A stretch of 31,581 nt of DNA, from positions 1 through 31,581 of the IMG/VR virus record IMGVR_UViG_3300046787_000331; one strand, written 5' to 3'. Source of the DNA: a virus. Shown in pieces: positions 1 through 28,854 of this stretch. Numbering within the stretch: position 1 is the first letter of the stretch; each line of letters begins with the position of its first letter. A program made the position numbers and the translations under genes. A model generated the notes under the pieces. That model saw only the letters and a list, made by a program, of their open reading frames with translations, was not told the DNA's origin and searched no databases.

Positions 1-131
1 TCTTTAGGCTCATCATTATCATCATATACGATGAGTTTATCAATCTTTTTAGTTTGATTAATCACCGCGGACATTGCCATCGGCAATGTCGTATCGTATC
101 TACCCCTCGTAGATATTGAACAAAGTATCAT
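1..131 (-). CDS. Partial GT2-like glycosyltransferase, N-terminus only
   Basis: This frame runs open from an ATG at 131 to the left window edge, giving about 43 residues. The translation begins MILCSISTRGRYDTTLPMAM and continues with INQTKKIDKLIVYDDND. This is the typical first strand, helix and second strand of a GT2-type (GT-A fold) glycosyltransferase: an S-x-x-T-R-x-R start, a helix, then a strand ending in acidic residues. The ATG overlaps the stop of the large upstream glycosyltransferase by four bases (ATGA), so the two are probably translationally coupled in one operon. Family placement is an inference from a short N-terminus; the catalytic part lies outside the window. Confidence 0.6.
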   Translation of the reverse strand, partial: MILCSISTRGRYDTTLPMAMSAVINQTKKIDKLIVYDDNDEPK

Positions 132-3100
132 ACACGCTCCCATTTTTCAACATAAACACCAATCTCGTACTGATTTACGAGTGTGCCATTTGCGTCCCAT
201 TGAAAATTCATAATGGGAACACAACTTACTCGATTATATCCTAACGATATCATACGATTCCTTACCACTTCTACATTTTTGTATTCGGGATTCTCATTAA
301 TATGAGAATGAATTTCCATGTGAACTGTTCTGAACTTACGAATGACTTCACGTTCGGTATTCAATAAAATATCAAATTCAGATCCTTCACAATCTAGTTT
401 CAACAACATATTGTTATCGTCAATATCACCAACTAGTGTTTTCAACGAAACAGTCGCCACTGCCTCGCCTGCGCCTGAAGTCAAGGTTGACATTACATCG
501 CTATCGGTAATGTGCACAATCTTACCATCAATATCTAGTGCAGCATTGTTCATAGCAACAACTCGTGGATTACCAGCAACATTAGTTAGTAATCTTTTAT
601 ACACATTGGGATTTGCTTCAACAGTGATACATTTTTTTGCGCCCATCTCTAAACATTTGAGAGTGAAAAATCCAATGTTTGCACCAATGTCAACAACGAC
701 TTTATCCTGTACGTCGGCCGGAGTTAATCTATATGAATCGTTCATAAAAATCTCATCATACAGAGCCATGCTCTGTTTCTTTAAATCATCGTGATTTAAA
801 CTAAATCCAGGCTTAAACGCTTCCACCCGGAAATTGCTTTCTGGATGAGGGATCTTTTCATCCATGAACACGATATTAGTATATCCAGAATTCACTAAAT
901 GATCGTACATACTTTGTGGCCACCAGCCAAACAAGTGAGGACTGGTGATATCACCAGGTTCTCCAGAGCTAGTAGTATTAACACTGCCGTATATAGCATT
1001 CAGAATGCCATATCTCTCTCCAGTCGATGCAGTTGCGAATCGTTTGCATAGTTGTTCGATATCTGGCATTTCCATCACAAGCTTGCCGCCTGGTTTAAGT
1101 ACTCTGAGCCAATCTGTTAGAATGTCGATACTCTTGTATGGATTAAGATGCTCGAATACGTGGCTAGCCAAAATTTCAGTAACACTGTTGTCTTCGAAAT
1201 CTAGCTTGGTGATGTCCATATCGATATGTGCTCGACTATCATATTTGTCTACACTTAGATAGCCCTCATACTCAATACCGCCGGCGCCCAAATTCAACTT
1301 AATGTTTTTGTTGAAGCGCTTACAGTTAATCAATCCATTGCGTTTGACAATGTGTCTGCTGTATTCTGGGATATCACGGAATGTTCGATTGTCTTTGTGC
1401 CAGATAGGGAATGAACCAGTGTTCGTGCCGGCGGTGTTACTGAAGCTTGTAGGTGCAACTAACTTGGACTTGTAACCAGCAAGATTGGCTCTAACAGTGA
1501 AGTCAATATCTTCACCACCGCCTGGAGTAAATATTTCATCTAATACACCGATCTTGGCAAATAGATCGCGTTTGATCATCACACAGAAGAAAATCAGAAC
1601 GTTGCTTGCAGCATATCGATCATACAATTCTAGCGGGCCGGTCAGACCAACATTTTCTTCTTGTTTAAACGGATTTTCTAGCATGTCAAGCCATTGATTG
1701 GTTGGCTGAGCCAGTAATTCCGTATCATTGTTGAGTAATACCACATATTCGCCTGTAGACTGTGCGATACCCAAGTTGGTTGCTTTGGTGTATCCTAATG
1801 CTTCATCGGACCATACTAATTTTACATGATCACCTAAACTCTCCACGTACTCACGTGTGTTATCTGTGCATCCATTAGCTGACACGATAATTTCTGTCGA
1901 TGTCATATCAGTATACTTTTCAATACTCTCGATACATGGCCGCAACAAATCATCACAATGATTATAGGTAGGAATAACAATACTATACTTTATACTCGGC
2001 TTAACTCGCTCAAGTACTAGCAATCCGTTGCAATTAGTGAAACGTTCTTTGATTACCCAGGACTTATCTTTTTCTAGAAATTCTTCAACTGCCTTCATCA
2101 GGCCGCCAGGACTGCCATCTTCGTCTATACGACCATAGGTCTCCGTATCGTGCATGATAATATACTTGCGTGCCTTATTAGCATGCATGTTTAGCTCTGT
2201 TATCAATTGCTTATAGGAATGCTCTGTGTCAATAAAGAGCAAATCAGTTGGTTCGATTTCTACTTGAATAGTATTTCGTTCCATGAATCCAAACTCAATA
2301 TTGTTTTCGCCAGCAATAGACGCGGCTTTCCAGATATTTGGATGTGGTGTCAGATCATATGACAGCATCTTCTTTGGAAGACCAGCCAAAAATCCGTATG
2401 TTGATACCACGAATCTAGTACCAAATTCAGTGATGTGATCACACTCGGATGCATACTTACGTAGAGTGTGCATATGCTCATGAATATCAATCGGAGTGTT
2501 TGCACAGTAATCAAACATGTACTGCAAACTGGCAGAAATATTCTTCTTACCATGTCGTTTATACAAAATTTCTCTATTGCGCGTTACTATGTCTATATCT
2601 TTGTTTTTGTCCATTGTTTGTACATTTCCTAAGTGCATTACCGGGAAGTTTATAGAAAACACATTGTTCTGATATGTTTTGCTTGGATTATGAGCTGGTA
2701 CTTCCACACATTTATAACCAGCTTTCCAAATACGCATCGAAACATCAGGATCACTAAAATATCCAGGATTGAATATCTCATCGAACATCCCTATGTTCTT
2801 CAACAATCTTGCATCATACATTGCACATCCAGAATGCAGAACAAATCCCATATCCTGATATTCATGCGCAAATGGGCCTGATGCTCCTACTCTAACATCT
2901 TCATCAAATGGCGTTTTGAGTATATTGATCCATGAATCTACTGTCTGAGGCAGCAAAATACTATCGTCATCGAGAAGGACAATGTGTTTCCCACGACTCT
3001 GTTCTATACCAGCATTGTATGCTCGGATAACTCCCACAGGCTCATCAAACCAGATATAGCTAACTTTATCCGCTAGTGAATCTAACATCTGTCTTGACTC

Positions 3101-4633
3101 TTCTGGACTACCATTAGCAACGACGATAATTTCTTTATTGCTCAAATCAGTATAGGCTAATACTGCTTCGAGTCCTGGCTTTAATGCGTTGATGAAATTA
3201 TGACTCGTTGGAATAACGATGGAAATATCAACTTTCTTCTTGCTTTTCGTTCCCCAACGATCTGCAAGAATTCTATTATTTCGGTCGATTACTGCATTCT
3301 TTGATTCAACGTTATCGGCAAAAGTACCATTTCCTTTATGGAAAATAGGGAAGCCAAAGTTTTTAATACCTTCTGTGAATTCACCTGTTACGTCGTTTGG
3401 AACACTGACTAGCTTGTATCCGTGCTCAACTGCCCTTACACAAAAATCTCCGTCTTCTCCCATGCCAGGACTAAAAACTTCATCTAATATGCCTATCTTG
3501 TCGAACAACTCACGCTTCATCATCACTAACCAAAATGCCATAGCTTCACGGTTAACTCCGCCACAATCCCAACTGAATTTTACTGGGCCAGTAACGCCAG
3601 TTGACTTGTCACTAAACGGTTGTTCCAATAATTGAAGCCACTTGTTTTTTTCTTGGGCCAGCAATTCGATATCATTGTTCATCAATATGACATACTCACC
3701 CTTTGCAACTCTAATACCTTCGTTAGTAGCCTTTGTGTAACCAGCTGAATTTTGTATCCAAACTAGTTTATAGTTTGGACCTAGACTTTCTGCATACGCA
3801 CGAGTGTTATCAGTGCAACCATTTGCAACGATTATCACTTCAACGTTCGATAAATCAGTGTATTTCTCGATAGATTCAATACATGGCCGCAACAAATCAT
3901 CACAATGATTGTAGGTAGGAATCACTATGCTGTATTTTGGCGTGTTCATTGTAGTATTATATCTCTTCATTAGAGTTTGTCTATTCTTTTGGACAGCCTG
4001 ACCATAATATTCGGGTAATTCACCAAAAGTTTTATTGGATTTATGCCATAATGGAAAAGTTCCAACATTCATTCCATCAATAAGCGTGGTTTCGTCGATG
4101 CATTTCCATTTATACCCATGATCCAGTACTCTCATTGAGAAATCAATGTCTTCGCCATAACCTGGACTATAGATTTCATCCAAATATCCAATTTTTTCAA
4201 AGATTTCTCGCTTAATCATCGCACAGCAAAAAACAATAAAGTCATGTTGAATATCATGATCAAATAACTTTAGAGATCCAGTCATTGCCATTTTTTCGTC
4301 ATTCAAAAATGGTTTCTCTAGAATTTGTAACCATTGATTGAATGCGGATCCTAGAATTTCCGTGTCGTTGTTAAGCAATATAACATACTCACCTGCTGCT
4401 TTCTTGATGCCGTGATTAACTGATATAGTGTATCCCAGTGGATCGTCGAACCAGAGTAATTTCACTGGCAAATTCAGTGAATTTACGTATTCTTTAGTGT
4501 TATCTGTGCAGCCATTAGCAACTATAACTAGTTCTGTTTGACTGAAATCTGTGTATTTTATTAATGATTCGATGCAGGGCTTTAAAAGATCATCACAATG
4601 ATTGTATGTGGGTATTACAATACTATACTTCAT
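128..4633 (-). CDS. Seven-module GT2 glycosyltransferase / methyltransferase megaprotein
   Basis: The 1501-residue product is a chain of modules. Four GT2 glycosyltransferase domains start near residues 1, 230, 467 and 880, each opening with SIVIPT and carrying the nucleotide-sugar motif as NND (LLNNDTE, LMNNDIE, LLNNDTE) or, in the third, DDD. Each ends in a related FP-x-W/M-H segment. A methyltransferase/CmcI-like module (about 703-880, LFIDTEHSY, IIMHD) lies between the third and fourth. After the fourth come a class I SAM methyltransferase (about 1111-1290, LNLGAGG, HVFEHL, LKPGG) and an FkbM-type methyltransferase (about 1309-1500, VVDIGANIGFFT). The expected role is sequential sugar transfer and O-methylation in the cytoplasm, building a glycan. 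A GGAG Shine-Dalgarno sits four bases before the ATG, and a CTTAAATA box lies upstream. The acceptor is unknown. Family calls are firm; the biological role is inferred. Confidence 0.92.
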   Translation of the reverse strand: MKYSIVIPTYNHCDDLLKPCIESLIKYTDFSQTELVIVANGCTDNTKEYVNSLNLPVKLLWFDDPLGYTISVNHGIKKAAGEYVILLNNDTEILGSAFNQWLQILEKPFLNDEKMAMTGSLKLFDHDIQHDFIVFCCAMIKREIFEKIGYLDEIYSPGYGEDIDFSMRVLDHGYKWKCIDETTLIDGMNVGTFPLWHKSNKTFGELPEYYGQAVQKNRQTLMKRYNTTMNTPKYSIVIPTYNHCDDLLRPCIESIEKYTDLSNVEVIIVANGCTDNTRAYAESLGPNYKLVWIQNSAGYTKATNEGIRVAKGEYVILMNNDIELLAQEKNKWLQLLEQPFSDKSTGVTGPVKFSWDCGGVNREAMAFWLVMMKRELFDKIGILDEVFSPGMGEDGDFCVRAVEHGYKLVSVPNDVTGEFTEGIKNFGFPIFHKGNGTFADNVESKNAVIDRNNRILADRWGTKSKKKVDISIVIPTSHNFINALKPGLEAVLAYTDLSNKEIIVVANGSPEESRQMLDSLADKVSYIWFDEPVGVIRAYNAGIEQSRGKHIVLLDDDSILLPQTVDSWINILKTPFDEDVRVGASGPFAHEYQDMGFVLHSGCAMYDARLLKNIGMFDEIFNPGYFSDPDVSMRIWKAGYKCVEVPAHNPSKTYQNNVFSINFPVMHLGNVQTMDKNKDIDIVTRNREILYKRHGKKNISASLQYMFDYCANTPIDIHEHMHTLRKYASECDHITEFGTRFVVSTYGFLAGLPKKMLSYDLTPHPNIWKAASIAGENNIEFGFMERNTIQVEIEPTDLLFIDTEHSYKQLITELNMHANKARKYIIMHDTETYGRIDEDGSPGGLMKAVEEFLEKDKSWVIKERFTNCNGLLVLERVKPSIKYSIVIPTYNHCDDLLRPCIESIEKYTDMTSTEIIVSANGCTDNTREYVESLGDHVKLVWSDEALGYTKATNLGIAQSTGEYVVLLNNDTELLAQPTNQWLDMLENPFKQEENVGLTGPLELYDRYAASNVLIFFCVMIKRDLFAKIGVLDEIFTPGGGEDIDFTVRANLAGYKSKLVAPTSFSNTAGTNTGSFPIWHKDNRTFRDIPEYSRHIVKRNGLINCKRFNKNIKLNLGAGGIEYEGYLSVDKYDSRAHIDMDITKLDFEDNSVTEILASHVFEHLNPYKSIDILTDWLRVLKPGGKLVMEMPDIEQLCKRFATASTGERYGILNAIYGSVNTTSSGEPGDITSPHLFGWWPQSMYDHLVNSGYTNIVFMDEKIPHPESNFRVEAFKPGFSLNHDDLKKQSMALYDEIFMNDSYRLTPADVQDKVVVDIGANIGFFTLKCLEMGAKKCITVEANPNVYKRLLTNVAGNPRVVAMNNAALDIDGKIVHITDSDVMSTLTSGAGEAVATVSLKTLVGDIDDNNMLLKLDCEGSEFDILLNTEREVIRKFRTVHMEIHSHINENPEYKNVEVVRNRMISLGYNRVSCVPIMNFQWDANGTLVNQYEIGVYVEKWERV
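230..4633 (-). repeat. Four diverged GT2 repeats with near-identical starts
   Basis: The starts of the GT2 modules are still alike at DNA level. The segments around 1937-1992 (module 4) and 3884-3940 (module 2) share a long stretch including ggccgcaacaaatcatcaca with only scattered changes, and the start of module 1 (about 4580-4633) is a more diverged version. This points to duplication of an ancestral module within the gene, with homology long enough for further recombination. Confidence 0.75.
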
Positions 4634-4698: not shown

Positions 4699-5517
4699 TT
4701 ATGACCAGCCAGTTATGTTTGTGTCTGCTCCAGTAGAGCCAACATCCCACATTTCAATTCTTGTACCAGCGTATATCGTACTCACTGTTGGAGTAGTCGA
4801 AATATAATTGAACAACGGTATTACAGTACCAGTTGATCCCACATCTATATATCCATCTATATAAACGACATACACCGCAGCAGTTGATGGACTGTTATCA
4901 GTGATTGGGTCTAGTGTAGAAAATCCAGAAGATATTCTATTGGTCATAATACTTGCTGAAGAAATTGTAGTAAGATCAACAGCACTTCTACTAGTAACCG
5001 AGTATTCATGTGCTAGCAGAGATGCAGTGCCTCCGAGTGCATATCCTAGATTTGTTGCGACAGTACTTGATTTTCCTACTATCATAGTTAAACGATAACG
5101 ATATCGATTGGGAGTTAATGTAACTGAATATCCTGTCGTACTACCTAAAATTCCTTGAGCGGTGGTTGAGTTGTTTCCAGTTCTGTCGGCATTCTGTATG
5201 TAAGTTAGTACCGCAGGAGCTGCACTAGATCCAGAATACCCAGAGTAGCCACTTGTGCCTACTCCACTGTATCCTGACTGACCTCTTGCGCCAGTGGTGC
5301 CTGTTACTTCCCATGTGGTACTATTATATATAAATTCATATGTTACATGACTGAGGTCTAGTGCAACAATGTCAGTTAAACCTTCAATGGTGCTACCATT
5401 TGGATCAACAAAACAATTAATGGCGGCAAGATCCCAGCCATCAGTTATTTGAATATAGTCTCCTGTTATCGGCGCTGCTGGAAGATAGATGGTGAAACTG
5501 CCCAGTTGAGTGTTATC
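4699..5517 (-). CDS. Distal half of frameshifted collagen-like fibre protein
   Basis: This frame is open from about 5517 to the stop at 4699 and continues the fibre gene after a frameshift. It first encodes a second copy of the beta-rich domain of the proximal half (NTQLGSFTIYLPAAP, ITDGWD, PNGSTIE, GTTGARGQSGYSG), then a short SGYSG stretch, then about 170 residues of Ser/Thr/Gly-rich sequence ending DTNITGWS. That last part is probably the C-terminal tip or trimerisation domain. The first in-frame ATG is at 5085 and has no Shine-Dalgarno, so independent translation is unlikely. It is either a broken distal part, an assembly error, or reached by recoding. The frame and the repeat match are directly visible; the fibre role is inferred. 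Confidence 0.65.
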   Translation of the reverse strand, partial: DNTQLGSFTIYLPAAPITGDYIQITDGWDLAAINCFVDPNGSTIEGLTDIVALDLSHVTYEFIYNSTTWEVTGTTGARGQSGYSGVGTSGYSGYSGSSAAPAVLTYIQNADRTGNNSTTAQGILGSTTGYSVTLTPNRYRYRLTMIVGKSSTVATNLGYALGGTASLLAHEYSVTSRSAVDLTTISSASIMTNRISSGFSTLDPITDNSPSTAAVYVVYIDGYIDVGSTGTVIPLFNYISTTPTVSTIYAGTRIEMWDVGSTGADTNITGWS

Positions 5518-5899
5518 TATCGTAGTTCGTGGCAGTATAGTTGCTATTAATCACCGTCCACGGAGTTAGGGCGGCGCCACTATACCCAGAAATTCCGCTA
5601 TAACCAGACTGACCTCTTGCGCCGGTGGTGCCTGTTACTTGCCAAGTAGTTCCGCTATAAATGAACTCAAACGTAACTCCCTTAAGGTCTAACGCAACGT
5701 TATCAGCCAAGGTTTCGATGGTACTACCATTGGGATTGACAATGCAATTGTTGACCGCAAAATCCCAACCATCCGTTATTTGTACATAATCTCCAAGATT
5801 TGGACTAGCTGGCAAATAAATAGTGAAACTTCCACTCTGTGTATTCGCTATTATTCTCGCGCCATTGGATGCTGTGTAGTCACTAACTACTAAAATCCA
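5245..5899 (-). repeat. Tandem duplication of a fibre domain, about 331-339 bp
   Basis: The domain from the Trp at 5897-5899 to the GARGQSGYSG segment is repeated from the Trp at 5558-5560. The offset between copies is 339 bp at the start and 331 bp at the end (gacctcttgc at 5611 and 5280). The second copy is therefore 8 bp shorter, and that deficit is what puts the distal half out of frame. Confidence 0.8.
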
Positions 5900-6520
5900 A
5901 TTTGAAACTCCTGAGCCGTTTAACCCGCTAAATCCAGAGAATCCACTAACGCCTATTGTTCCGTCTAGACCAGAATAACCACTTGCTCCGGTTGCGCCAG
6001 AGTAGCCGCTGATGCCATCAGAGCCAGTAGTTCCAGATAAACCAGAGTAGCCGCTTGTTCCGTTGGCACCTGGCATGCCTGAATATCCACTAATGCCATC
6101 AATGCCTGTACTACCACTCGCACCAGAATATCCACTAGCTCCATCAATACCCACACTACCTGAGTATCCAGAATATCCAACTAGGCCGGAGTAACCGCTG
6201 ATACCATCGATGCCTGTCGCACCTGAATATCCAGATGTTCCCATTGCACCAGAATATCCACTAGCGCCTATCTCACCTGAGTAGCCTGAACTTCCTACAA
6301 ATGCGGCGCCTGAATAACCACTAGCACCTGCTGCGCCTGAATAACCACTTATCCCTGTGCCGCCGCCAGAGACGATAATACCACCTGGAGTTATTCCGTC
6401 ACTGATTCTGACCGTATTAGTAATACTGTCATACCATAATCTATCCAGTTGGCCTATTCTTGTATTGCCATCTGCATAGTTACTCCTACTAGTGAATAGT
6501 TCTTGGACGAAATCTGACAC
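5513..6520 (-). CDS. Collagen-like (GYSG-repeat) tail fibre protein, proximal half
   Basis: The 335-residue product starts with a GTG at 6520, six bases after an AAAGG Shine-Dalgarno that follows the upstream stop. Residues 1-56 form a short phage-fibre-type N-terminus (FVQELFTSRSNY, RIGQLDRLWYD, RISDGITPGG). Residues 57-207 are Gly-X-Y triplets dominated by SGYSG with A, T, I and D variants. A beta-rich domain follows (FTIYLPASP, ITDGWDF, NGSTIETL, GTTGARGQSGYSG). The frame then stops early at 5513, inside a second copy of this domain whose remainder continues in another frame down to 4699. Proteins of this kind are common as fibres or appendages in environmental phages. There are almost no Pro or Lys in the triplets, so this is not vertebrate-like collagen. 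The structural role is inferred. Confidence 0.8.
   Translation of the reverse strand: MSDFVQELFTSRSNYADGNTRIGQLDRLWYDSITNTVRISDGITPGGIIVSGGGTGISGYSGAAGASGYSGAAFVGSSGYSGEIGASGYSGAMGTSGYSGATGIDGISGYSGLVGYSGYSGSVGIDGASGYSGASGSTGIDGISGYSGMPGANGTSGYSGLSGTTGSDGISGYSGATGASGYSGLDGTIGVSGFSGFSGLNGSGVSNWILVVSDYTASNGARIIANTQSGSFTIYLPASPNLGDYVQITDGWDFAVNNCIVNPNGSTIETLADNVALDLKGVTFEFIYSGTTWQVTGTTGARGQSGYSGISGYSGAALTPWTVINSNYTATNYDR
5900..6352 (-). repeat. Collagen-like Gly-X-Y coding repeat (SGYSG units)
   Basis: The stretch encodes about 150 residues of triplets built on SGYSG, separated by one to four further triplets such as ATG, IDG, AAG and TTG. At DNA level the units (for example agaatatccact and close variants) recur irregularly, which favours slippage or unequal recombination and length variation of the shaft. 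Confidence 0.85.
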
Positions 6521-11814: not shown

Positions 11815-13725
11815 TTACTCATATAGTGTTTTATAATGTTCGTTTAGCCAATCCCAAGAGAAAGTTTTCATAAGCTCGACATGCTCTCCATTGACTTTCT
11901 TGTAATAATCAAGTCCATCTCTGGCTCCATCTAAGCTCCATTGTGCATTTTTCCCCTCTGCTATGGTTAACCAAACAAACAGTCTATCTTTACTCTCTTG
12001 ATCGTCATTTTCAGCTGCTACTTGTAACTTAATTACTTCCCTAAACGCGGTGCGCCATGTCATCACGTGATCAGTGTTGTATTCAGCAATACCACTTATT
12101 TCAGGAACAATATCATGTAGCTGACTCATGGTAAAATCCAATCCATAATCAACTGTATCCAAAACTAGTTGTTTGTTGTAGCAAACTGCTGCCATATGTC
12201 CATACGTCAATTGATTAACTGGATTTTTTGCATAGAACACATAATGTTTTGGTTCGTGAAATCTATTAGGCTGAAAGTCGAAATTAAAATTCTCGTTGGC
12301 ACGCAACTTTGCGGGAAACACAAAAAACCAATCAGTATCACTTAGTTCGGCCGCTCTAACTAACGCATTTTCTCGACCTGCTATTCCAGAAACTCTCTTA
12401 ACGTCTCGGTTAGCACATTTAGCCAGCCAGCCGTAATGTTCTTCTGCATCTGTTTCTCCGTTACTAATGAAGAATATATCCAACTGGCTAATAGTCAATG
12501 TAGCCTTCTGATCGCCACAATATTTTATATTTCTTGCGTTTGGCGTAAGATACAGTATTGTAGGAGTTTCTTCAGACTTTCTATGTTGATTACCGAAAGC
12601 GTAGACATATGGTTCTTCAGTGTCATCCGGGTGCCAACTATAATCGAAGTTCTCTATCTCGTGTTGACGAGTACTAAACCAATTCTCACTCGAAGGCAGT
12701 CTGACTACTTTCTGATCATCTACGTATTTTACTACCGTTGCTCCAGGAACCACATATCTAGGGCCACCTGTTTTTTGCCACTGGGTTCCAAATTGATAGA
12801 TGTATGGTTCTGTATCTGTTTCTGGAGGAGTCCACATATAGTCGAATGCGCTATCGTCAATGTTGTCGGGAAATACCCAATTACTTTGCTGTTTATATTT
12901 TATTTGAGTAGCAGAGTCAATTACGTTGGATGCTGATAAATCATTGACATATATTGTCTCTGTTGCGCCAGGAACCACGTATCTTGGGCCTGCATTTTTA
13001 TTCCAGCTCGTGCCGAACTGATAGATATATGGAGGTGATGTATCATCTGGATGCCAACTGAAATCAAAGTTAACATTTAAATTTCCTCTCCATCGCCTGC
13101 TTATCTCAGTAACGAATACTGTTGCTTTTTGATCTTCAACGTATTTTACTGCTGCTGCTCCAGGAACCACATATCTAGGGCCACCTGTTTTTTGCCACTG
13201 GGTTCCAAATTGATAGATGTATGGTTCTGGTTCATATGGACTAGGTACCCAACTAAAATCAAAAGAGGACTTATCTACATTAGGTGGTATTTCCCATTTA
13301 TCCCAATCAGGAGTTGCCAGCACTACAACATCAGTAACATATTTCGTTGATTTTGCTCCTGGCATAACGTATCTAGGACCAGGAATATCCCGCCATTTTG
13401 GGCTATTGAATTGATAGATATATGGTTCTGGCTCTGTATCATCTGGATGCCAGCTAAGATCAAAATCCAAATTATCAATATTTCGCCAGCGTCTATTTTT
13501 TGGCTTTGGCAAAGCCTTTGCTTTCTGCGAATCTTCGTACTTGACTTGAGTGGCGCCTGCTACAATATATCTAGGCCCACCTGTTTTTTGCCATTGAGTT
13601 CCGAATTGATGAATGTATGGTGGATCATGAGGATTGGGAGTCCAGGAAAAATCAAAATCACTTACATCAAGCTGGTTAGGTATTTCCCAGGGAGCCTGAC
13701 TTGATATGTTTGTATAGTTAGACAT
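11815..13725 (-). CDS. Six-repeat protein with C-terminal GT-A-like domain
   Basis: Residues 1-455 of the 636-residue product are six repeats of about 60-75 residues, each with a F-D-x-x-W-x-P motif, a PYIYQFG motif, a GPRYVVPGA motif and a KY-x-x-D end. They alternate between an A type (SWTPNP or SWVPSP, with FGTQWQKTGGP) and a B type (SWHPDDT). Residues 460-636 (DIFFISNGETDAEEHYGWLA, RVSGIAGRENALVRAAELS, DWFFVF) resemble GT-A-like domains found in phage repeat proteins, but the usual DGD metal motif is not visible at the expected place after FVF. It may be an inactive or binding version. AGTAAATA ends five bases before the ATG with no Shine-Dalgarno. Structure-based role unknown. Confidence 0.75.
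   Translation of the reverse strand: MSNYTNISSQAPWEIPNQLDVSDFDFSWTPNPHDPPYIHQFGTQWQKTGGPRYIVAGATQVKYEDSQKAKALPKPKNRRWRNIDNLDFDLSWHPDDTEPEPYIYQFNSPKWRDIPGPRYVMPGAKSTKYVTDVVVLATPDWDKWEIPPNVDKSSFDFSWVPSPYEPEPYIYQFGTQWQKTGGPRYVVPGAAAVKYVEDQKATVFVTEISRRWRGNLNVNFDFSWHPDDTSPPYIYQFGTSWNKNAGPRYVVPGATETIYVNDLSASNVIDSATQIKYKQQSNWVFPDNIDDSAFDYMWTPPETDTEPYIYQFGTQWQKTGGPRYVVPGATVVKYVDDQKVVRLPSSENWFSTRQHEIENFDYSWHPDDTEEPYVYAFGNQHRKSEETPTILYLTPNARNIKYCGDQKATLTISQLDIFFISNGETDAEEHYGWLAKCANRDVKRVSGIAGRENALVRAAELSDTDWFFVFPAKLRANENFNFDFQPNRFHEPKHYVFYAKNPVNQLTYGHMAAVCYNKQLVLDTVDYGLDFTMSQLHDIVPEISGIAEYNTDHVMTWRTAFREVIKLQVAAENDDQESKDRLFVWLTIAEGKNAQWSLDGARDGLDYYKKVNGEHVELMKTFSWDWLNEHYKTLYE
12739..13229 (-). repeat. 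Identical 74-bp copies within the repeat gene
   Basis: The stretch 12739-12812 is identical, as read, to 13156-13229. Both encode the A-type repeat core YIYQFGTQWQKTGGPRYVVP. The identity implies recent duplication or gene conversion, and makes repeat number prone to change. Confidence 0.85.
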
Positions 13726-14659: not shown

Positions 14660-15289
14660 ATGAAATTAGAAATTTTCGACATACTTCAGGACGAATACTG
14701 GTATAGGAGAGTTATAAAATCTATTCCGGACATTGTGAGCTCCGGGCACTATAATTCTCGGAATTATAGTGACTTAGAATCGAGGTTGACTAGGTATGAC
14801 TGTTTTACGGTAGTAGTGGATACTGACTCCGACACTCTGATGGCTATTAGTGGGTTGTTTAACGGAGGCATATATCCAAAAAACGTTGCAAGAGTTCTAG
14901 ACAGAACTTATTATTATAATTGGAGAGAGAATTTACTGAGTCCATATAATTCAGCAGTTCAATATAACACTAATTTTGCCACCCCATTTCAAATAGAGTT
15001 TGCAAAAACTAAAGGGTATGATGCTGTGTTTTTTAGTATGCAAACAGGAAATAAACGTAACGCCATAATAGCAATGGCAAAAAGGCAAGTTCAATATAAA
15101 TTCACTGTATTGGATGGAATGTATAATACCTGTCCTCTTATACACAATGTCGCAAATCCAGCTGAAAAGTGCTGGCAAAACATAGCTATTCATTACATAA
15201 ATGAAACAGAATTCTTATTGCCGAAATTAACCATAGAAGAATATAATGACACGTATCCAAGACCTAAGGACTTACGCGACACATCGTAA
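14660..15289 (+). CDS. GNAT-like acetyltransferase (tentative)
   Basis: The 209-residue product has features seen in phage GNAT-type proteins: a strand FTVVVDTDSDTLMAISGLF, then ARVLDRTYYYNW, and a GYDAVFFSMQTGNKR segment where the C-terminal strands of the acetyl-CoA fold would be. A clear acetyl-CoA pyrophosphate loop (R/Q-x-x-G-x-G/A) is not obvious, so activity is uncertain. It follows a 241-bp gap containing a late-type box and overlaps the start of the next gene by 44 bp. Likely role, if correct: N-acyl modification of an amino sugar or other metabolite made by the cluster. It could also be an unrelated alpha/beta protein. Confidence 0.5.
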   Translation: MKLEIFDILQDEYWYRRVIKSIPDIVSSGHYNSRNYSDLESRLTRYDCFTVVVDTDSDTLMAISGLFNGGIYPKNVARVLDRTYYYNWRENLLSPYNSAVQYNTNFATPFQIEFAKTKGYDAVFFSMQTGNKRNAIIAMAKRQVQYKFTVLDGMYNTCPLIHNVANPAEKCWQNIAIHYINETEFLLPKLTIEEYNDTYPRPKDLRDTS

Positions 15290-15791
15290 ACTACCCAAAG
15301 CAACTTTTTTAGGAAATCTCTCAAATGATTGGGTTAGTAAATCATTAGATCACTGTAGTGCGTTACCTAGTCAGTTACAAACTACTGTAACAGAGCGCAA
15401 CAGTATACCAATCCATGGAACTAAAATTTACTATGATCAATTAGAGGGTATATATGATCAGCGAAAAATATCACTTGACGTACATGACCTTGATCCGATC
15501 ATTATCAGACTTCAAGGAGTGAATCATTTACGATATGCATTATTGAATCCTAAATCAACTATTCCTGCACATTTGGATGACCCGTATACATTGCGATTCA
15601 TTTGCATGTTGCAAGGTAAACATATACTGTCTAGCGAAGGGACTGATTTTGAGATGACAGCTGGTGAATTATGGTTTGTGAATGGATCTTATAAGCATTC
15701 GATTTTTAACTCCGAAGATTACACAAGAATAGCTTTACTAGGTAATTTTGCGTATAGTGATTTTAATATAAATATGTTGCGATCTATATGA
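15246..15791 (+). CDS. Asp/Asn beta-hydroxylase-like 2OG-Fe(II) oxygenase
   Basis: The 181-residue product shows the double-stranded beta-helix iron triad: H109-x-D111 in IPAHLDDP, H151 in YKHSIFN, and R161 in TRIALLGNF to bind 2-oxoglutarate. LNPKSTIPAH before the first His and AGELWFVNGS before the last are typical of aspartyl/asparaginyl beta-hydroxylase-like enzymes. It would hydroxylate an unknown substrate in the cytoplasm. The ATG at 15246 overlaps the previous gene by 44 bp; a later start is possible, since the catalytic half begins near residue 85. Its stop overlaps the next ATG by four bases, so it is coupled to the radical SAM gene. Confidence 0.8.
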   Translation: MTRIQDLRTYATHRKLPKATFLGNLSNDWVSKSLDHCSALPSQLQTTVTERNSIPIHGTKIYYDQLEGIYDQRKISLDVHDLDPIIIRLQGVNHLRYALLNPKSTIPAHLDDPYTLRFICMLQGKHILSSEGTDFEMTAGELWFVNGSYKHSIFNSEDYTRIALLGNFAYSDFNINMLRSI

Positions 15792-16735
15792 ACTATTACG
15801 AATTAGAACCAGAAAATAACCATTTTAGTGATGTTATGGTAGATGTTACACATCGATGCAACATGACCTGCAAAAATTGCTATATACCGAACCGAGAGAT
15901 ACCTGATCTGGACGCTGATAAAATTATTGAAACTATTAGTAAATTTCCAAAAAGAACAATGATAAGGGTCGTAGGAGCTGAGCCTACGATGCGCAGGGAT
16001 CTACCGACACTGATAAAACGTATCCGCGAAACCGGACATAGAGCAACCTTGTTGACCAATGGGTTGCGTCTAGCTAACAACAATTATGTAAAAACGCTAA
16101 AGGAACATAGATTATCGCATGTATATCTAAGTTTGAATGGCGTTGATAATAATGACTGGTATGAACAAATAGACGAAATGAGATGCGCTAAGAAAAAAAT
16201 ACATGCACTAGAAAATCTCATAGCAAATCGGTTCATCATTGACACTGGTACTATAATTGTCAAGGGCATAAACGATGAAGCACCATCTAGACTATTACAC
16301 TTATATAAGTCAAAAGGACTAGACAATGTAGTGTGCAGAATTAAAAATGTAGGGATTATTGGCAGAAGCATTCTTGATCCAAAAACAAATAATAGTGTGA
16401 TTCCAGTGCATAGCAATTATACCATGCATGGTCTTATTAAGCTAGTTGCTGAACAAGTCGGAGTAAGTTTGGATTACATCGAAAGCTGGAAAAATAAACC
16501 TATATATGAAAATACCGATGCAGAAGAAGATAGTTTTATGTTTCCGTTGAATCCACACAGCGAACATAAAATGCTACACAAGAGCGGCGTGTGGTTTAAA
16601 ATAGCTAACTGGGACACTACTACTAATATAGATGGGGTGCCGTTGCCCGGTAGCGTAAGGCGCGGACGACTAACACCGGACTTCAAGATTGCTCCAATGT
16701 TAGAGCATGTTAAACTGAATGAGTATAAATACTAA
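15788..16735 (+). CDS. Radical SAM protein
   Basis: The 315-residue product has the radical SAM cluster motif C24-x3-C28-x2-C31 (HRCNMTCKNCY). It is followed by VVGAEPT in place of the usual GGEP, then LLTNGLRL and a VYLSLNG strand. It lacks the C-terminal Cys-rich SPASM region seen in many family members, so it should carry one 4Fe-4S cluster. Its reaction cannot be predicted. It starts by ATGA overlap with the 2OG oxygenase gene and ends 25 bp before the next ATG, with a late promoter box overlapping its last codons. Family assignment is firm. Confidence 0.88.
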   Translation: MNYYELEPENNHFSDVMVDVTHRCNMTCKNCYIPNREIPDLDADKIIETISKFPKRTMIRVVGAEPTMRRDLPTLIKRIRETGHRATLLTNGLRLANNNYVKTLKEHRLSHVYLSLNGVDNNDWYEQIDEMRCAKKKIHALENLIANRFIIDTGTIIVKGINDEAPSRLLHLYKSKGLDNVVCRIKNVGIIGRSILDPKTNNSVIPVHSNYTMHGLIKLVAEQVGVSLDYIESWKNKPIYENTDAEEDSFMFPLNPHSEHKMLHKSGVWFKIANWDTTTNIDGVPLPGSVRRGRLTPDFKIAPMLEHVKLNEYKY

Positions 16736-19531: not shown

Positions 19532-20182
19532 TTATACACTCATAGTATTTCTTATACATTTATATAACGAGTTATTGTTTAACGCGATGTTAAGGACTAA
19601 TAATATCATCGAATCTGAACAACTAAAAACAACATGATTCTGTGCAGTGTTTACAATGTATACGTTACCTTCGTCAAAGTGTATAGGAACATCATTAATA
19701 AGAAAATAATGAACTGCTTTATCAAATTTTATAGGAACAATTACTCTAAAATCCATAAATCGTTGACTATCTCTGTGAGGAGGAAAGAATCCGCCAGCAT
19801 CGAGTCGTAAAAAATGACTTCTTCTAATATATCCGTCGAAGAATGATTTGATAGATTCTAATGACGGAGTTGTATCCGCTACAGAAGTGAATAATTTAAA
19901 GTCGTGCTCGTTATAATTTGTTCCGTGTTCTGTGTTATATTGTCTTAAACTATCTAAACTTACTGGATCTATCACTTCGCCATCTATACTTGTATAAGGT
20001 AAGCCAAATCTATTATTTTTAGGAGTCCTTGGATTATACACCTGCCAACTATCTTTCCACTGTATGAGTTCTTGCCGACAATGAAAATGGTTAATTTTAA
20101 AATTTAAAGGAATAACCTGTCCTAAGGAAAATAATGCATTGTATAGAACACTATTTTGTATCCACATTTCTTCATTTGACAT
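19532..20182 (-). CDS. 2OG-Fe(II) oxygenase-like protein, Asp/Asn hydroxylase type
   Basis: The 216-residue product has H136-x-D138 in FFPPHRDSQ, then DFRVIVPI, HYFLINDVPIHFDEG, and VNTAQNHVVFSCSD with H183 as distal iron ligand. The Arg usually found after the distal His to bind 2-oxoglutarate is not at the expected place (SDSMILLVLNI), so co-substrate binding may differ or activity may be altered. An AATAAATA box ends five bases before the ATG with no Shine-Dalgarno, suggesting a leaderless mRNA. It heads a short operon with the next oxygenase gene. Fold assignment good; reaction unknown. Confidence 0.75.
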   Translation of the reverse strand: MSNEEMWIQNSVLYNALFSLGQVIPLNFKINHFHCRQELIQWKDSWQVYNPRTPKNNRFGLPYTSIDGEVIDPVSLDSLRQYNTEHGTNYNEHDFKLFTSVADTTPSLESIKSFFDGYIRRSHFLRLDAGGFFPPHRDSQRFMDFRVIVPIKFDKAVHYFLINDVPIHFDEGNVYIVNTAQNHVVFSCSDSMILLVLNIALNNNSLYKCIRNTMSV

Positions 20183-20207: not shown

Positions 20208-21503
20208 TCACAAATCTTTGCAATAATTGTAAAGATTTGAAAATTCCGGAAATACTTCTAAGAAATTTATCTTTTTCTCTTCGGCTAAGATATTGACATT
20301 CTCATACCACTTTTTTAAAATCACAGGATCAATAGTTGAATTATTTTCTATTCCTATTTTAAGACTAGCTATCAAATCGACATATAACTTAGGATAGTTG
20401 TTTTGAGTTGCATACTCTAATGCGGTGGTTACATAACTAGCAAAATATGGCGGTAAGATAAAAGGATACAGATGCTCAGGATAGGCAACTATACTAGGTG
20501 ATAGATGTATAGTGATCCCATACCTGCTAGCAAGAGAGTTGTGCCATTCTAAGAATTCTTTAAACCTAGGAATAGATAATGCATTTATTGCAGGGTTTAT
20601 AGTAATTTCTATATCAGGTATACTCACTAACAACTTATGAAAATTAGATTCGAACCTTTCCCAAACTAAATTCGTTCTAATAAATTCTGCTTGCTTATAC
20701 AATGCTTCAATGCTTACCGTTAGTTGTAGTTTGAATGTTTCTGCAAGTTTTTTTAAATAAAGGAGAAACTTATCAAACTGTTGAGATTTTGTGTTCAAGT
20801 TAGTAACTATCCATACCCTAGTTGATTTGTCTTTTATTTTTGAATACTTCTCTAATAGCATATCGATTTGATTATAAAATTCTGGATTTATAGAAGGCTC
20901 ACCTCCTATAAATCCTATAAATTTAAGTTTATCTTTATCTAAAGAGTCAAACCATTCTGACGTTTTAGTAGTAAACAAGTTATTTGTAACGGTTGAGGTA
21001 CAATAATTATATTGATCTTGGGTTATTATGTTTTTTTGTAAATCGTGCAATGCCCATTGTGAACTATATGACCTACTACAATACATACATTTCATATCAC
21101 ACAAGTTTTCTAAAGTGAACTCTAATCTTCTAGGTGTATCTACTGTTAATATCTTGCTATCTATAGTTACCAATTTAGAAATAATGCCTAAATCAGTGGT
21201 GCCGAATTCTTGGATTAGTTCGTCACGAAAATATTCTTCAAATCCTTGGCCGTCGCGCAATCTCATACTGGTTCCGCCAGAGTCTTCTATCTTCCAACAG
21301 TTCTTGCAATCAGAATGTCGAATGCCTTGTAGCATCTCTAATCTGCGAGCTTTTTCGTAGTCAGTATTCATAAAGTATGGGTTTGCCTGACTAATATCGG
21401 TAGGCCTATTAGGCAACTTACAACATAACTTAAACTCTGACCTAGCTAGACTTACGACCGCAGATAGCCATTTATTAAGACAAATTGTATTATTCGGATT
21501 CAT
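20208..21503 (-). CDS. Radical SAM protein with N-terminal extra Cys cluster
   Basis: The 431-residue product has the radical SAM motif C135-x3-C139-x2-C142 (LCDMKCMYC), then FIGGEPSINPEF and the strand WIVTNLN. Before it, residues 1-75 carry further Cys residues (C8, C27, C28, and C66-x2-C69 in SDCKNCW), a half-SPASM or twitch-like arrangement placed at the N-terminus rather than the C-terminus. It probably binds two iron-sulphur clusters. Peptide-modifying maturases and other SPASM/twitch enzymes share this logic; the substrate here is unknown. GATAAATA ends four bases before the ATG, with no Shine-Dalgarno. Family firm; permuted layout as read. Confidence 0.87.
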   Translation of the reverse strand: MNPNNTICLNKWLSAVVSLARSEFKLCCKLPNRPTDISQANPYFMNTDYEKARRLEMLQGIRHSDCKNCWKIEDSGGTSMRLRDGQGFEEYFRDELIQEFGTTDLGIISKLVTIDSKILTVDTPRRLEFTLENLCDMKCMYCSRSYSSQWALHDLQKNIITQDQYNYCTSTVTNNLFTTKTSEWFDSLDKDKLKFIGFIGGEPSINPEFYNQIDMLLEKYSKIKDKSTRVWIVTNLNTKSQQFDKFLLYLKKLAETFKLQLTVSIEALYKQAEFIRTNLVWERFESNFHKLLVSIPDIEITINPAINALSIPRFKEFLEWHNSLASRYGITIHLSPSIVAYPEHLYPFILPPYFASYVTTALEYATQNNYPKLYVDLIASLKIGIENNSTIDPVILKKWYENVNILAEEKKINFLEVFPEFSNLYNYCKDL

Positions 21504-22460: not shown

Positions 22461-23942
22461 TCAACTAAACACCTTTACCCCGTATTCTCTTTCAAATCTG
22501 TCAGCATCTGCACGGTCATTTACCATAGGTTCTCCTCTAATATTTAAACTAGTATTCAATAACATGGGACATGATGTTTTGGCGTACCATAATTCTAACA
22601 TTTGTCGTATCCCACTATTACCTGCGGGCACGGTTTGAACTCTACTGGTTCCATCGGCATGCACGATTGCTGGATACTGAGTCGGATATTTGCAAGTTGC
22701 AACAGTTTGCATATACTGACTATTACTCCATCCTCTAGGCATTTCGAAATAATCTTGCGCGTGTTCTTCTAAGATTACTGGAGCAAAAGGTCTAAACTGC
22801 TGTCGTCGTTTTATATGATTGACTTTTTCTTTTATTGTTTGTCCTCTAGGATCAGCTATTAGACTTCTATTTCCCAACGCCCGTGGCCCAAATTCTGCAC
22901 GGCCGTTGGCAATTCCCACTATTCCATGCGTTAACAGGTGATTAACTACATTATCGACTGGATATTTTCCAGAAATATTATGCCCTAAATATGCATCTTT
23001 CCAATTAATTTTTCCGCCATATCCAAGCGCAGCGGCGCCTAAGCTACTTCCGGCATCGCCGGGATTAGGCATGATCCAGATATTTTTAAAAAAATTACCC
23101 AAATTTCTATTGGCCAGACAGTTTAGCGCTACTCCTCCCATGTAAACCAGATTGTCACTAAATGCGAAAGTTTTTGCTTTGTGCATTACTGAATTGATCA
23201 ATTCTTCGACCACTAGTTGGGTTCCGGTCGCGATATCAAATGAATTGTGGTCTGATAAAAAATCTGAACTTATGCCCGTATGAAAATTCTGCCGCATGGT
23301 GATATTTTTCATGTCACCAACTGACGCATCTCTTATTGTATTTTTCAGATGGTTCGAACCATAGGCGGCCATACCCATTAATATGTATTCCTCGTCCAAT
23401 GGCCTAAGGCCAATTCTATCAGTCATAGCACTATAAAATAGTCCTATGCTGTCAGGGTATGATTGTGACCATAGTTTCTTGTATCTGGCAATGCCGTTAA
23501 CATACATAGCTCCCCAAATTGAAATAGTGTCAAACTCTCCGATCGCATCTATTACTACCACAGTTGCTTTATCATAAGGACCCGTCTGAAATCCTGCGGC
23601 GGCGTGACATAAGTGATGACTATGCGTTTGTATCTTTGTAACGCCAAGCATATCAAATATTTCATTACCGACTAGACTTGAAGTTCGTAAGCTAGATATA
23701 GATGGAGATTCTCCTGATCTTAGTTGTCTAATAAATTTTAGCCATGGTCGCTCGTAATAGTGAAGCTTAGATTCATGATCACAATGACTTAGAACATCGG
23801 CCAACAATGCGGAGCATATGTTAGAATCATGTTTCTTTTTACTATATCGTTCACTATGGCCTGCAAATTTAATTTCGCCGGATTCGTCGACCACACTGAT
23901 CGCCGCATCATGAAATCCAGATGATATGCCAACATATCTCAT
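22461..23942 (-). CDS. NodU/CmcH-family carbamoyltransferase
   Basis: The 493-residue product spans both domains of the O-carbamoyltransferase family (NodU, CmcH, TobZ). The N-terminal Kae1-like part opens MRYVGISSGFHDAAISVV, includes the His-rich metal and carbamoyl-phosphate site HHLCHAAAGF (109-118) and VVIDAIGEFD, then EEYILMGMAAYG. The C-terminal part has GRAEFGPRALGNRSLIADPR and NTSLNIRGEPMV. It transfers carbamoyl from carbamoyl phosphate, via ATP, to a hydroxyl on a sugar or similar acceptor. Length slightly below the typical 560-600. It overlaps by ATGA with a 39-residue ORF of a kind often found beside such genes. The acceptor is unknown; phage DNA bases are one alternative to glycans. 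Confidence 0.93.
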   Translation of the reverse strand: MRYVGISSGFHDAAISVVDESGEIKFAGHSERYSKKKHDSNICSALLADVLSHCDHESKLHYYERPWLKFIRQLRSGESPSISSLRTSSLVGNEIFDMLGVTKIQTHSHHLCHAAAGFQTGPYDKATVVVIDAIGEFDTISIWGAMYVNGIARYKKLWSQSYPDSIGLFYSAMTDRIGLRPLDEEYILMGMAAYGSNHLKNTIRDASVGDMKNITMRQNFHTGISSDFLSDHNSFDIATGTQLVVEELINSVMHKAKTFAFSDNLVYMGGVALNCLANRNLGNFFKNIWIMPNPGDAGSSLGAAALGYGGKINWKDAYLGHNISGKYPVDNVVNHLLTHGIVGIANGRAEFGPRALGNRSLIADPRGQTIKEKVNHIKRRQQFRPFAPVILEEHAQDYFEMPRGWSNSQYMQTVATCKYPTQYPAIVHADGTSRVQTVPAGNSGIRQMLELWYAKTSCPMLLNTSLNIRGEPMVNDRADADRFEREYGVKVFS

Positions 23943-26202: not shown

Positions 26203-28854
26203 ATGGACAAAGATTCATGGATTGCGGAACATATGTTCCCAAAAAACACAGAAATAGCAAAAAACACAGAGAGAAAAACTCGCCTAAATGTTAAGTCTCT
26301 AAGTTTACTAACGGCAAAAAGAAAAACCAAAATTACATTTTGTGTGCTTGGTAGTTGGGCAATATATATGCCGCCATATGGCTTAGCCAGGCTATCAGCT
26401 CTAACCCGAGAGTCTGGATTTTTAACCAGAGTATATGATTTCAATGTTGACTCGTATCATGCACTTAGACAAGCAAACCCTGAATTAGAAAATGCATGGG
26501 ACAGTGGTCTATATTGGTGGTGGGAGAAAAAGGAAGAATATACTAATAGAATTTTTGAAAGTTATAAACCAATTCTTGAAGAATATCTAGAGATTCTACT
26601 CGCCGATGATCCTGACATTATAGGCTTCAGTTGCTATTACACTAATAAGTGGGCTACATTTTGGATGATGGAGCAAATAAAATTAAGAAAACCTGATATT
26701 ACTATTATCGCGGGTGGGCCAGAGTGCGCGGAGGTCTCCTTCACCCCGGTGGAAGAGATTCAGTACTATTTTGTGGGCGAGAGTGAACAAAATATTCTAG
26801 ATTTTCTCAATAATTGGGAGTTAGGAATCAAGCCTAACTCCAAAAAAATAGGAGGCCTTTACAGTGACACTAGAATTGACATTGACAGCTTGCCATATCC
26901 AGATTACAGTGATTTCGATTTAACAAAATATTTGGGGAAAAACAGCATATGTGCGGAGATTAGCAGAGGCTGTATTGCCAAGTGTACTTATTGCACAGAA
27001 GTTTATTACTGGAAGTTTAGAGATCGTGGCGCAAAAAATGTTGTTGATGAGATAGAGTATCAAGTGTTTTACCATGACATCACATTCGTCAACTTTGTTG
27101 ATAGCTTGATGAACGGGAATCTCAAGGAATTTAGAAAATTTTGTGAAGATTTGAGGAGTAGAAATTTAGGAGTTAATTGGTGGGGATATTTGAGAGCTGA
27201 CGGGAGAATGGACAGAGAATTCTACCAAATCATGAAGGATGCTGGCGCAAGAGGATTCAATTATGGGTTCGAAAGTGGAAGTGATAAAGTTCTGCGTCTC
27301 ATTAATAAGAAAAATACAGTTGCTGAAATTAATCAGAACATTATTGATGCGGATGCATGTGGCATAGAGACTAATGCTTGTTTAGTACTTGGAGCTCCAG
27401 GAGAAGATAGTGAAGCATTCATGCACACATGTAATATGATATGGAATCATAGAGCTAGAATAGCGTCTACATCACCAGGCCCGGGCCTAGGCGACAACCC
27501 AGGATCGGCTTACGACAATCGAGAACAATTTAATATCAGTCCAAGAGATCATGCATGGATGGCGGCGTGGTACACTCTTGATTTAAAAAATACTCGGTTA
27601 CATAGGATGATTCGTGTAAAAGTTATGCACATGTGGGTTTACATGTGCAAAGAATATGGCAATGGCAAAATACAAAATGTGCATGCTCAAGGAGACATAA
27701 CAGATCACTTCAAGGTCAAATTTGACACGGACACTATCAGAGATCATTTGGAATACGAAGAATTTGACTTTAACATTATCAATTCAAAAAGTCACAGTGA
27801 CTTCGCGAACTCTTTGATGAACGAAGTTTTTGTGTTATTACGATTATTATGGCGCGCCAGGGGTGGATATGAGATAAACATAGACTTTTCATGGGATCTA
27901 ACTCTGCGAGATTTTGCATTCACAGTGCATGATCCAGACAGTGTTAGGTATGATTCTTCTATATGGTTTAAAATCACCGAAGATGGAAATTACGAAACAA
28001 ATATGAATTTTAAGTTTGTTAATAATCACCAAAATATCGTACCAGAAATAAATTTTGATTACACATTTAATTCAACTGGAAGCTGGATCGAGACTAAGAC
28101 TAACAAGAGTAGTCACAAAACTATGTATATAAAACAAAAGCTTGTTCCAACCGCTAGCGTAATACCCGCGGTAATACCATATTCAAAAATGCCATTGACT
28201 TCGTGTTGGTCAGGCATATCATATGAAGGTAGGAACATGCTGTATCATCTCGCGAGATTTATTCCTCGTGCAAGTTTGATACTGGAAACCAGTGCTGAAT
28301 TTGGCGGAAGATCGAGTATAATCGCGTCAGTTCAACCATCTGCAACAATCATATCATGTTATGAATCATTTCCTGCTAGTAGAATGCATCATGAATCTCC
28401 ATGGATACCTGAACAAGTGTTAAGTGAATGTGGGAAAAAAGGCATTGCCTCTGAGATAGGAATTCAACTAATAGAGGATATGACTAACGCTATATCCATT
28501 GATAATACTGGCAGAGCTGCTTTCGACAAAGTAACTAGCCAATTTAGTAACATAATTCCAATCGACATGGCAGCCGTCGAGATGTCGCTCGCCACTGGGA
28601 TAGATCATGGATTATCGGTTGATCTGAAGAATTGCGCGATGATTATTTTAAATGCATATAATCTAGAGACGGCACAATATCAGTACGAGAATATAGTACT
28701 TCCTTGTTTACATGAAGATGGCATATTAGTTTTGCCACAATGTCATCCAGGAATTAAAGAAATTGAGCACTTTATAGACATTTTAACAGAGAATGGCTGG
28801 GCAATCACCAAAAGAAAAGATTCAGTAGTAGCGCTCAAAAGAACACTAGCGTGA
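26203..28854 (+). CDS. B12-binding-type radical SAM protein fused to a methyltransferase-like domain
   Basis: The 883-residue product is a fusion. Residues 45-205 resemble the B12-binding domain of class B radical SAM enzymes (MPPYGLARLSALTRESG, DDPDIIGFSCYY, IIAGGPEC), without the classical DxHxxG. The radical SAM core follows with C257-x3-C261-x2-C264 (RGCIAKCTYC), YGFESGSDKVL and LVLGAPGED. A middle beta-rich region (about 560-690) is unassigned. Residues 690-880 resemble a class I methyltransferase (SLILETSAEFGGRSSIIAS, then ISCYES at the end of strand two). Such radical SAM enzymes methylate unactivated carbons or rearrange rings. The AAGGA site is 14 bases from the ATG, which is long. 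Fusion of both chemistries in one phage protein is unusual. Confidence 0.85.
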   Translation: MDKDSWIAEHMFPKNTEIAKNTERKTRLNVKSLSLLTAKRKTKITFCVLGSWAIYMPPYGLARLSALTRESGFLTRVYDFNVDSYHALRQANPELENAWDSGLYWWWEKKEEYTNRIFESYKPILEEYLEILLADDPDIIGFSCYYTNKWATFWMMEQIKLRKPDITIIAGGPECAEVSFTPVEEIQYYFVGESEQNILDFLNNWELGIKPNSKKIGGLYSDTRIDIDSLPYPDYSDFDLTKYLGKNSICAEISRGCIAKCTYCTEVYYWKFRDRGAKNVVDEIEYQVFYHDITFVNFVDSLMNGNLKEFRKFCEDLRSRNLGVNWWGYLRADGRMDREFYQIMKDAGARGFNYGFESGSDKVLRLINKKNTVAEINQNIIDADACGIETNACLVLGAPGEDSEAFMHTCNMIWNHRARIASTSPGPGLGDNPGSAYDNREQFNISPRDHAWMAAWYTLDLKNTRLHRMIRVKVMHMWVYMCKEYGNGKIQNVHAQGDITDHFKVKFDTDTIRDHLEYEEFDFNIINSKSHSDFANSLMNEVFVLLRLLWRARGGYEINIDFSWDLTLRDFAFTVHDPDSVRYDSSIWFKITEDGNYETNMNFKFVNNHQNIVPEINFDYTFNSTGSWIETKTNKSSHKTMYIKQKLVPTASVIPAVIPYSKMPLTSCWSGISYEGRNMLYHLARFIPRASLILETSAEFGGRSSIIASVQPSATIISCYESFPASRMHHESPWIPEQVLSECGKKGIASEIGIQLIEDMTNAISIDNTGRAAFDKVTSQFSNIIPIDMAAVEMSLATGIDHGLSVDLKNCAMIILNAYNLETAQYQYENIVLPCLHEDGILVLPQCHPGIKEIEHFIDILTENGWAITKRKDSVVALKRTLA

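What the first reader, a model, noticed from the sequence alone, without database searches (positions are those of the whole stretch)
128..4633. One polypeptide with four GT2 and three methyltransferase-like modules
A 1501-residue phage protein strings together GT2, GT2, GT2, CmcI-like, GT2, methyltransferase and FkbM modules. The near-identical DNA at the starts of GT2 modules 2 and 4 shows that modules were copied. This is an assembly-line-like layout in which module number and order could set a glycan sequence, and recombination between copies could change it.
Basis: partly seen in the sequence, partly recalled or inferred. Interest (0 to 1): 0.6.

Follow-up and report, generated by a model that had tools for sequence, protein, structure and literature searches.

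The report
Phage modular glycan-assembly polypeptide family
A phage gene encodes one large protein that chains four sugar-adding units and three methyl-adding units; relatives in other uncultured phages carry different numbers and orders of these units, often close downstream of collagen-like virion-type genes, so phages appear to reshuffle a built-in glycan-making machine.

Summary
The 1501-residue ORF is real (window 128-4633, minus strand). Its modules are GT2, GT2, GT2, CmcI-like methyltransferase (weak assignment), GT2, Methyltransf_11 and FkbM. All four GT2 modules keep the residues that are invariant across the family (NxD/DxD aspartate, ED aspartate, PxxH histidine). GT modules fall into five old paralogous classes (A, B, C, D, T). 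The window's order D-A-B-CmcI-T-MT11-FkbM is a permutation of a relative's A-B-D-T-MT11-FkbM. A T-MT11 core is shared; upstream modules are gained, lost and moved. The cited proof of copying (near-identical DNA at the starts of modules 2 and 4) is weak: synonymous codons match at about chance level. However, homogenised module starts are a real pattern in several relatives. The array usually sits in a cassette (array, a second GT2, a GT9-like gene), enriched downstream of collagen-like genes; a cultured phage has a minimal version. Best reading: a soluble multi-enzyme that builds an O-methylated oligosaccharide, probably on the phage's own fibre protein. Known analogues are PBCV-1 A064R and WsaE. 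Acceptor, sugars and collinearity are untested.

The parts
128..4633 (-). whole modular array ORF, 1501 aa
   Evidence: single ORF
3938..4633 (-). GT2 module 1 (class D), residues 1-232
   Evidence: Pfam GT2; groups with L007 module 3 at 100/99 support
3236..3937 (-). GT2 module 2 (class A), residues 233-466
   Evidence: Pfam GT2; class A, N-terminal in most relatives
2534..3235 (-). GT2 module 3 (class B), residues 467-700
   Evidence: class B; predicted GT-A fold, Z 21 to 6p61
1994..2533 (-). CmcI/Methyltransf_24-like module, residues 701-880
   Evidence: weak Pfam match below cut-off; conserved in L010, L018, L030; confident alpha/beta model
1319..1993 (-). GT2 module 4 (class T), residues 881-1105
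   Evidence: 66-72% identical over T-MT11 in 7 relatives
809..1318 (-). Methyltransf_11 module, residues 1106-1275
   Evidence: Pfam; follows class T in the relatives
131..808 (-). FkbM methyltransferase module, residues 1276-1501
   Evidence: Pfam PF05050
3854..3938 (-). start-of-module DNA repeat, module 2
   Evidence: 84% to 1907-1991
1907..1991 (-). start-of-module DNA repeat, module 4
   Evidence: repeat family D5 reference copy
4547..4631 (-). start-of-module DNA repeat, module 1
   Evidence: 72% to 1907-1991
1..131 (-). first 43 codons of the downstream second GT2 gene (CSISTRGRY family), cut by the contig end; its ATG overlaps the array stop
   Evidence: sequence; same gene follows arrays in 42 of 51 clusters
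4699..5085 (-). 128-aa protein between the collagen-like gene and the array, no Pfam match
5513..6520 (-). collagen-like protein (43 consecutive G-x-y triplets), candidate acceptor
   Evidence: Pfam Collagen E 1.2e-22; location relative to array

Best explanation
The protein is a soluble, phage-encoded multi-enzyme that builds one short O-methylated oligosaccharide. Shown: four GT2 modules with conserved active-site residues and three methyltransferase-type modules in one chain; a family in which such modules are gained, lost and permuted in whole units around a shared T-MT11 core; GTs first and methyltransferases after; location in a cassette with a second GT2 gene and a GT9-like gene, statistically associated with an upstream collagen-like gene. 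Inferred: the GT modules add different sugars in succession, the methyltransferases modify or cap them (the T-MT11-FkbM end caps the chain), and the glycan is placed on the phage's own collagen-like fibre protein, changing adsorption or exposure. Exchange of modules, with recombination at the conserved module starts in some lineages, alters the glycan between phages.
For: Module content. Active-site residues: D90, D162, P196 and H199 invariant in 60 of 60 GT modules. Variable architectures. Five GT classes and permuted class D. Closest pairs differing by one whole module: L024 (A-C-T) vs L026/L027 (A-B-C-T), core 82% identical; L006 (A-B-T) vs L007 (A-B-D-T), core 77%, same upstream genes. GT first in 54/54 complete arrays. 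Cassette: GT2' in 42/51 and GT9-like in 39/51 independent clusters. Collagen-like ORF within 1.5 kb upstream in 14/50 clusters, 5.1 expected from other ORFs in the same loci, none of 20,000 simulations reached 14; downstream 2/50. Cultured phage P19250A: giant collagen-like gene, then MT23, GT2', GT9. No stretch of transmembrane hydrophobicity in the array by a 19-residue Kyte-Doolittle scan (max 1.69). Homogenised module starts: 1.18x expected within arrays vs 1.03x between phages. Precedents: PBCV-1 A064R, two GTs plus a methyltransferase proven to act in succession (PMC9614988); C. difficile SgtA, a GT encoded next to the collagen-like BclA3 that it glycosylates (PMC7157674).
Against: No biochemistry; sugars and acceptor unknown. 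Most arrays (36 of 50 clusters) have no collagen-like gene within 1.5 kb upstream, including L006, L007 and L008/L009/L013. Collagen-like genes are common in these phages, so the link is an enrichment (about 2.7-fold), not a rule. The CmcI-like assignment is sub-threshold. Pelagimyophage authors prefer host O-chain modification for GTs in comparable regions (PMC7029224).
Confidence: 0.5

Rival explanations
1. The array modifies the host's surface polysaccharide (O-antigen or capsule) during infection, preventing superinfection; the GT9-like partner resembles heptosyltransferases of LPS synthesis.
For: GT9-like gene downstream in 39/51 clusters; cytidylyltransferase and epimerase-like genes upstream in L006/L007; a pelagimyophage study interprets GTs in the host-recognition region this way (PMC7029224).
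Against: Arrays often lie next to fibre-type genes, with an enrichment of collagen-like genes directly upstream; no membrane anchor seen in the array; the cultured P19250A minimal cassette directly follows a collagen-like gene.
Confidence: 0.3
2. The modules glycosylate hypermodified phage DNA bases.
For: Some phage GTs do this (noted in PMC12619734, which cites Pyle et al. 2024).
Against: Thymidylate-synthase-family genes (PF00303, which includes dCMP hydroxymethylases) were found in only 2 of 13 larger records; repeated methyltransferases and collagen linkage are not explained. Records are fragments, so this is weak.
Confidence: 0.05
3. Only some modules are active; the rest are scaffold or relics, so module number does not equal sugar number.
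For: Window module 3 (class B) has S in place of the ED glutamate, and the CmcI-like module is divergent.
Against: Every GT module keeps both aspartates and the histidine (60/60); most classes recur as separate clades across phages.
Confidence: 0.15

Closest known systems
PBCV-1 A064R (chlorovirus; PMC9614988)
   Same: One viral polypeptide with two GT domains and a C-terminal methyltransferase that extend a glycan in succession and O-methylate the last sugar; acts on the virus's own capsid glycan.
   Different: Three domains, no variation in module number or order that I know of; eukaryotic giant virus; no collagen-gene link. Homology to it was not tested here.
PBCV-1 A111/114R (PMC7826918)
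   Same: Three GT domains in one viral protein (Gal-, Xyl-, Fuc-transferase proposed).
   Different: No methyltransferase; conserved in all chloroviruses rather than reshuffled.
WsaE of Geobacillus stearothermophilus (PMC2943079)
   Same: Two rhamnosyltransferase domains and a 2-O-methyltransferase that caps the chain, in one soluble protein.
   Different: Methyltransferase is N-terminal (here GTs always come first); bacterial S-layer glycan; repeating-unit polymer.
C. difficile SgtA with BclA3 (PMC7157674)
   Same: GT gene beside a collagen-like surface protein that it glycosylates.
   Different: Single GT domain adding GlcNAc; gene lies upstream; bacterial spore coat.
Mimivirus L230 (PMC9614988)
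   Same: Virus enzyme that glycosylates collagen-like peptides of the virus.
   Different: One GT plus lysyl hydroxylase; acts on hydroxylysine.
Chondroitin synthase K4CP and heparosan synthase PmHS2 (PDB 2z86, 8vh7)
   Same: Two GT2 domains in one chain; among the best fold and sequence matches of the GT modules.
   Different: Polymerases alternating two sugars; no methyltransferases; no module variation.

Membership tests
Glycosyltransferase family 2 (GT-A) | Pfam PF00535 profile over the curated cut-off | tested here: met
   four stretches, each over cut-off
Glycosyltransferase family 2 (GT-A) | GT-A fold | tested here: met
   module 3 model Z 21.1 to 6p61_B, 19.5 to PmHS2; module 4 model matches GT2 structures
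Glycosyltransferase family 2 (GT-A) | NxD/DxD-type aspartate and a downstream ED/SD aspartate in each module | tested here: met
   present in all four modules and in 60/60 family modules
FkbM methyltransferase (PF05050) | profile over cut-off and glycine-rich motif I | tested here: met
   38.5 bits vs 22.7; VVDIGANIGFF in sequence
Methyltransf_11 (class I SAM methyltransferase) | profile over cut-off | tested here: met
   36.3 bits vs 21.2
CmcI / rhamnosyl O-methyltransferase (PF04989) | profile over the curated cut-off | tested here: not met
   17.6 bits vs 23.2; called CmcI-like only
A064R-type viral GT-GT-methyltransferase | several GT domains followed by a methyltransferase in one viral polypeptide | tested here: met
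A064R-type viral GT-GT-methyltransferase | sequence homology to A064R | not tested
   no A064R sequence was compared; only the shared layout is claimed
A064R-type viral GT-GT-methyltransferase | sequential transfer to one glycan | not testable with these tools
   needs enzyme assays
Collagen glycosylation system | GT gene linked to a collagen-like surface protein gene | tested here: met
   enrichment 14/50 vs 5.1 expected; P19250A
Collagen glycosylation system | glycan found on the collagen-like protein | not testable with these tools
   needs mass spectrometry

The most novel reading that the evidence does not exclude
Phages carry an evolvable, assembly-line-like glycan synthase: whole GT and methyltransferase modules are swapped within one gene, with recombination at homogenised module starts, so that module order specifies an O-methylated oligosaccharide displayed on collagen-like virion fibres.
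Probability: 0.25. Interest if true: 0.8.

Novelty: new variant of a known kind. Interest (0 to 1): 0.58.

Why it matters
Multi-domain glycan-building enzymes are known in giant viruses and some bacteria, but in the papers I could search I found no description of a phage family in which GT and methyltransferase modules vary in number and order inside one gene. If each module adds or caps one sugar, the gene layout predicts the glycan, which is otherwise hard to read from genomes. The collagen-linked cassette offers a testable route to phage fibre glycosylation, and a cultured phage (P19250A) carries a minimal version.

Tried and rejected
Assembly artefact: rejected, because comparable arrays occur on many contigs from different metagenomes. 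Recent duplication of modules 2 and 4: rejected on synonymous saturation and the class tree. Cellular origin: one scan of 85k-species genome contigs returned no T-MT11 core among its 80 best loci; the best GT-only hits (L092-L094) look like phage contigs binned into MAGs. Isolated-phage homologues of the array: only weak partial matches. No PDB sequence match for the CmcI-like module; its fold was not searched alone, and the two-domain fold search was filled by the GT domain, so its fold family stays open. Population variants: L047/L048/L049, L018/L019 and L020/L021 are near-identical contigs without module change. A literature search for tandem glycosyltransferase domains in phages returned nothing.

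Full report
What is there. The window is a 31.6 kb virus record. The ORF at 128-4633 is on the minus strand, 1501 aa, uninterrupted. Modules by residue: GT2 1-232, GT2 233-466, GT2 467-700, CmcI-like 701-880, GT2 881-1105, Methyltransf_11 1106-1275, FkbM 1276-1501. GT modules are 34-56% identical to each other. The CmcI-like call is sub-threshold. Its gene neighbour downstream, cut off by the contig end, starts inside the array's last codons (ATGA overlap) and encodes the same second GT2 (CSISTRGRY) seen in relatives.

Active sites. Across 60 GT modules of the family the NxD/DxD aspartate, the ED/SD aspartate, and the PxxH proline and histidine are invariant; window module 3 has E for D44 and S for E161 but keeps the rest. 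Structure models of modules 3+CmcI (pLDDT 86) and 4+MT11+FkbM (pLDDT 80) give GT-A folds closest to GT2 enzymes such as 6p61, heparosan and chondroitin synthases, WrtF and GalNAc-Ts.

Relatives vary. Scans of IMG/VR gave related arrays. Examples: T-MT11 (L008, L009, L013); A-T-MT11-FkbM (L005, 5' cut); A-B-T-MT11-FkbM (L006, L020, L022); A-B-D-T-MT11-FkbM (L007); A-C-T (L024) and A-B-C-T (L026, L027) with MT11-FkbM; L010 with A-MT23-B-CmcI and a separate T-MT11 ORF; a 2494-aa protein in L048/L049 with GT17, MT24 and FkbM modules. Of 54 independent complete arrays holding both kinds of module, all begin with a GT; under random order the chance is about 10^-15 (clusters share ancestry, so this overstates independence). 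There are 26 distinct architectures.

Origin of modules. The tree of GT modules shows classes A, B, C, D and T, with the same class recurring across phages, usually in the order A, B, (C or D), T. Class D pairs window module 1 with L007 module 3 at 100/99 support, so in the window D sits at the N-terminus instead of third place: a true permutation. The closest pairs that differ by one module share 77-82% identity in the core.

The DNA repeat. Modules 2 and 4 share 28/28 start residues but synonymous identity over the full modules is at expectation. Across arrays, however, the first 50 codons of modules within one array match more than expected (1.18x) while modules from different phages do not (1.03x), and the remainder is near 1.04x; L048 (1.61x), L189 (1.48x), L020 (1.46x) and L024 (1.31x) drive this, the window is 1.15x, z 1.8. 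Module starts thus look like conversion tracts in some lineages. Pairs of modules are not independent, so this is a pattern, not a formal test.

Neighbourhood. Independent clusters (70% identity) carry the second GT2 within 3 kb downstream in 42 of 51 and a GT9-like gene in 39 of 51. A collagen-like ORF lies within 1.5 kb upstream on the same strand in 14 of 50, against 5.1 expected from other ORFs in the same loci, sometimes only 2-77 nt away. In the window the collagen-like gene is at 5513-6520. T4-type Gp23 is present in records of L024, L033 and L042. The cultured Methylophilaceae phage P19250A has a 1201-aa collagen-like protein, annotated as tape measure, followed by a methyltransferase, the second GT2 and the GT9-like gene.

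Interpretation. The layout matches proven ordered multi-domain enzymes: PBCV-1 A064R (PMC9614988) and, with the methyltransferase at the other end, WsaE (PMC2943079). Collagen-like proteins are known GT acceptors (SgtA/BclA3, PMC7157674; mimivirus L230, PMC9614988), and virion glycosylation occurs in mycobacteriophages (cited in PMC12619734). The host-surface alternative (PMC7029224) remains open. The step from module order to glycan sequence is inference.

Noticed in passing
window 11815-13725 (-): 636-aa protein with several internal repeats (FDFSWxPDD..PYIYQFGTQWQKTGGPRYVVPGA); no Pfam match and no match in 50,697 phage records.
   Followed up: partly
window 15788-16735, 20208-21503, 26203-28854, 29766-30917: Four radical SAM proteins, one with SPASM and one with a weak B12-binding match, in one phage fragment.
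   Followed up: no
window 22461-23942 (-): Carbamoyltransferase (PF02543/PF16861), possibly a further sugar decoration.
   Followed up: no
window 15246-15791 and 19532-20182: Two Asp_Arg_Hydrox-like proteins (one just above cut-off, one below), conceivably hydroxylases.
   Followed up: no
L287 4759-8364 (KX815270.1 21390-24995): Gene annotated as tail tape-measure protein is a collagen-like protein with 138 consecutive G-x-y triplets; annotation probably wrong.
   Followed up: yes
L092, L093, L094: Array-related GTs on contigs binned into an archaeon, Mucilaginibacter and Nitrosotalea MAGs; L093 and L094 also carry the second GT2 and GT9-like genes, L094 an endolysin-like gene, so these look like misbinned phage contigs.
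   Followed up: partly
L048 3072-10553: 2494-aa array in 370 and 494 kb records with 83-89% identical internal DNA repeats at GT2 starts and within GT17 modules.
   Followed up: partly
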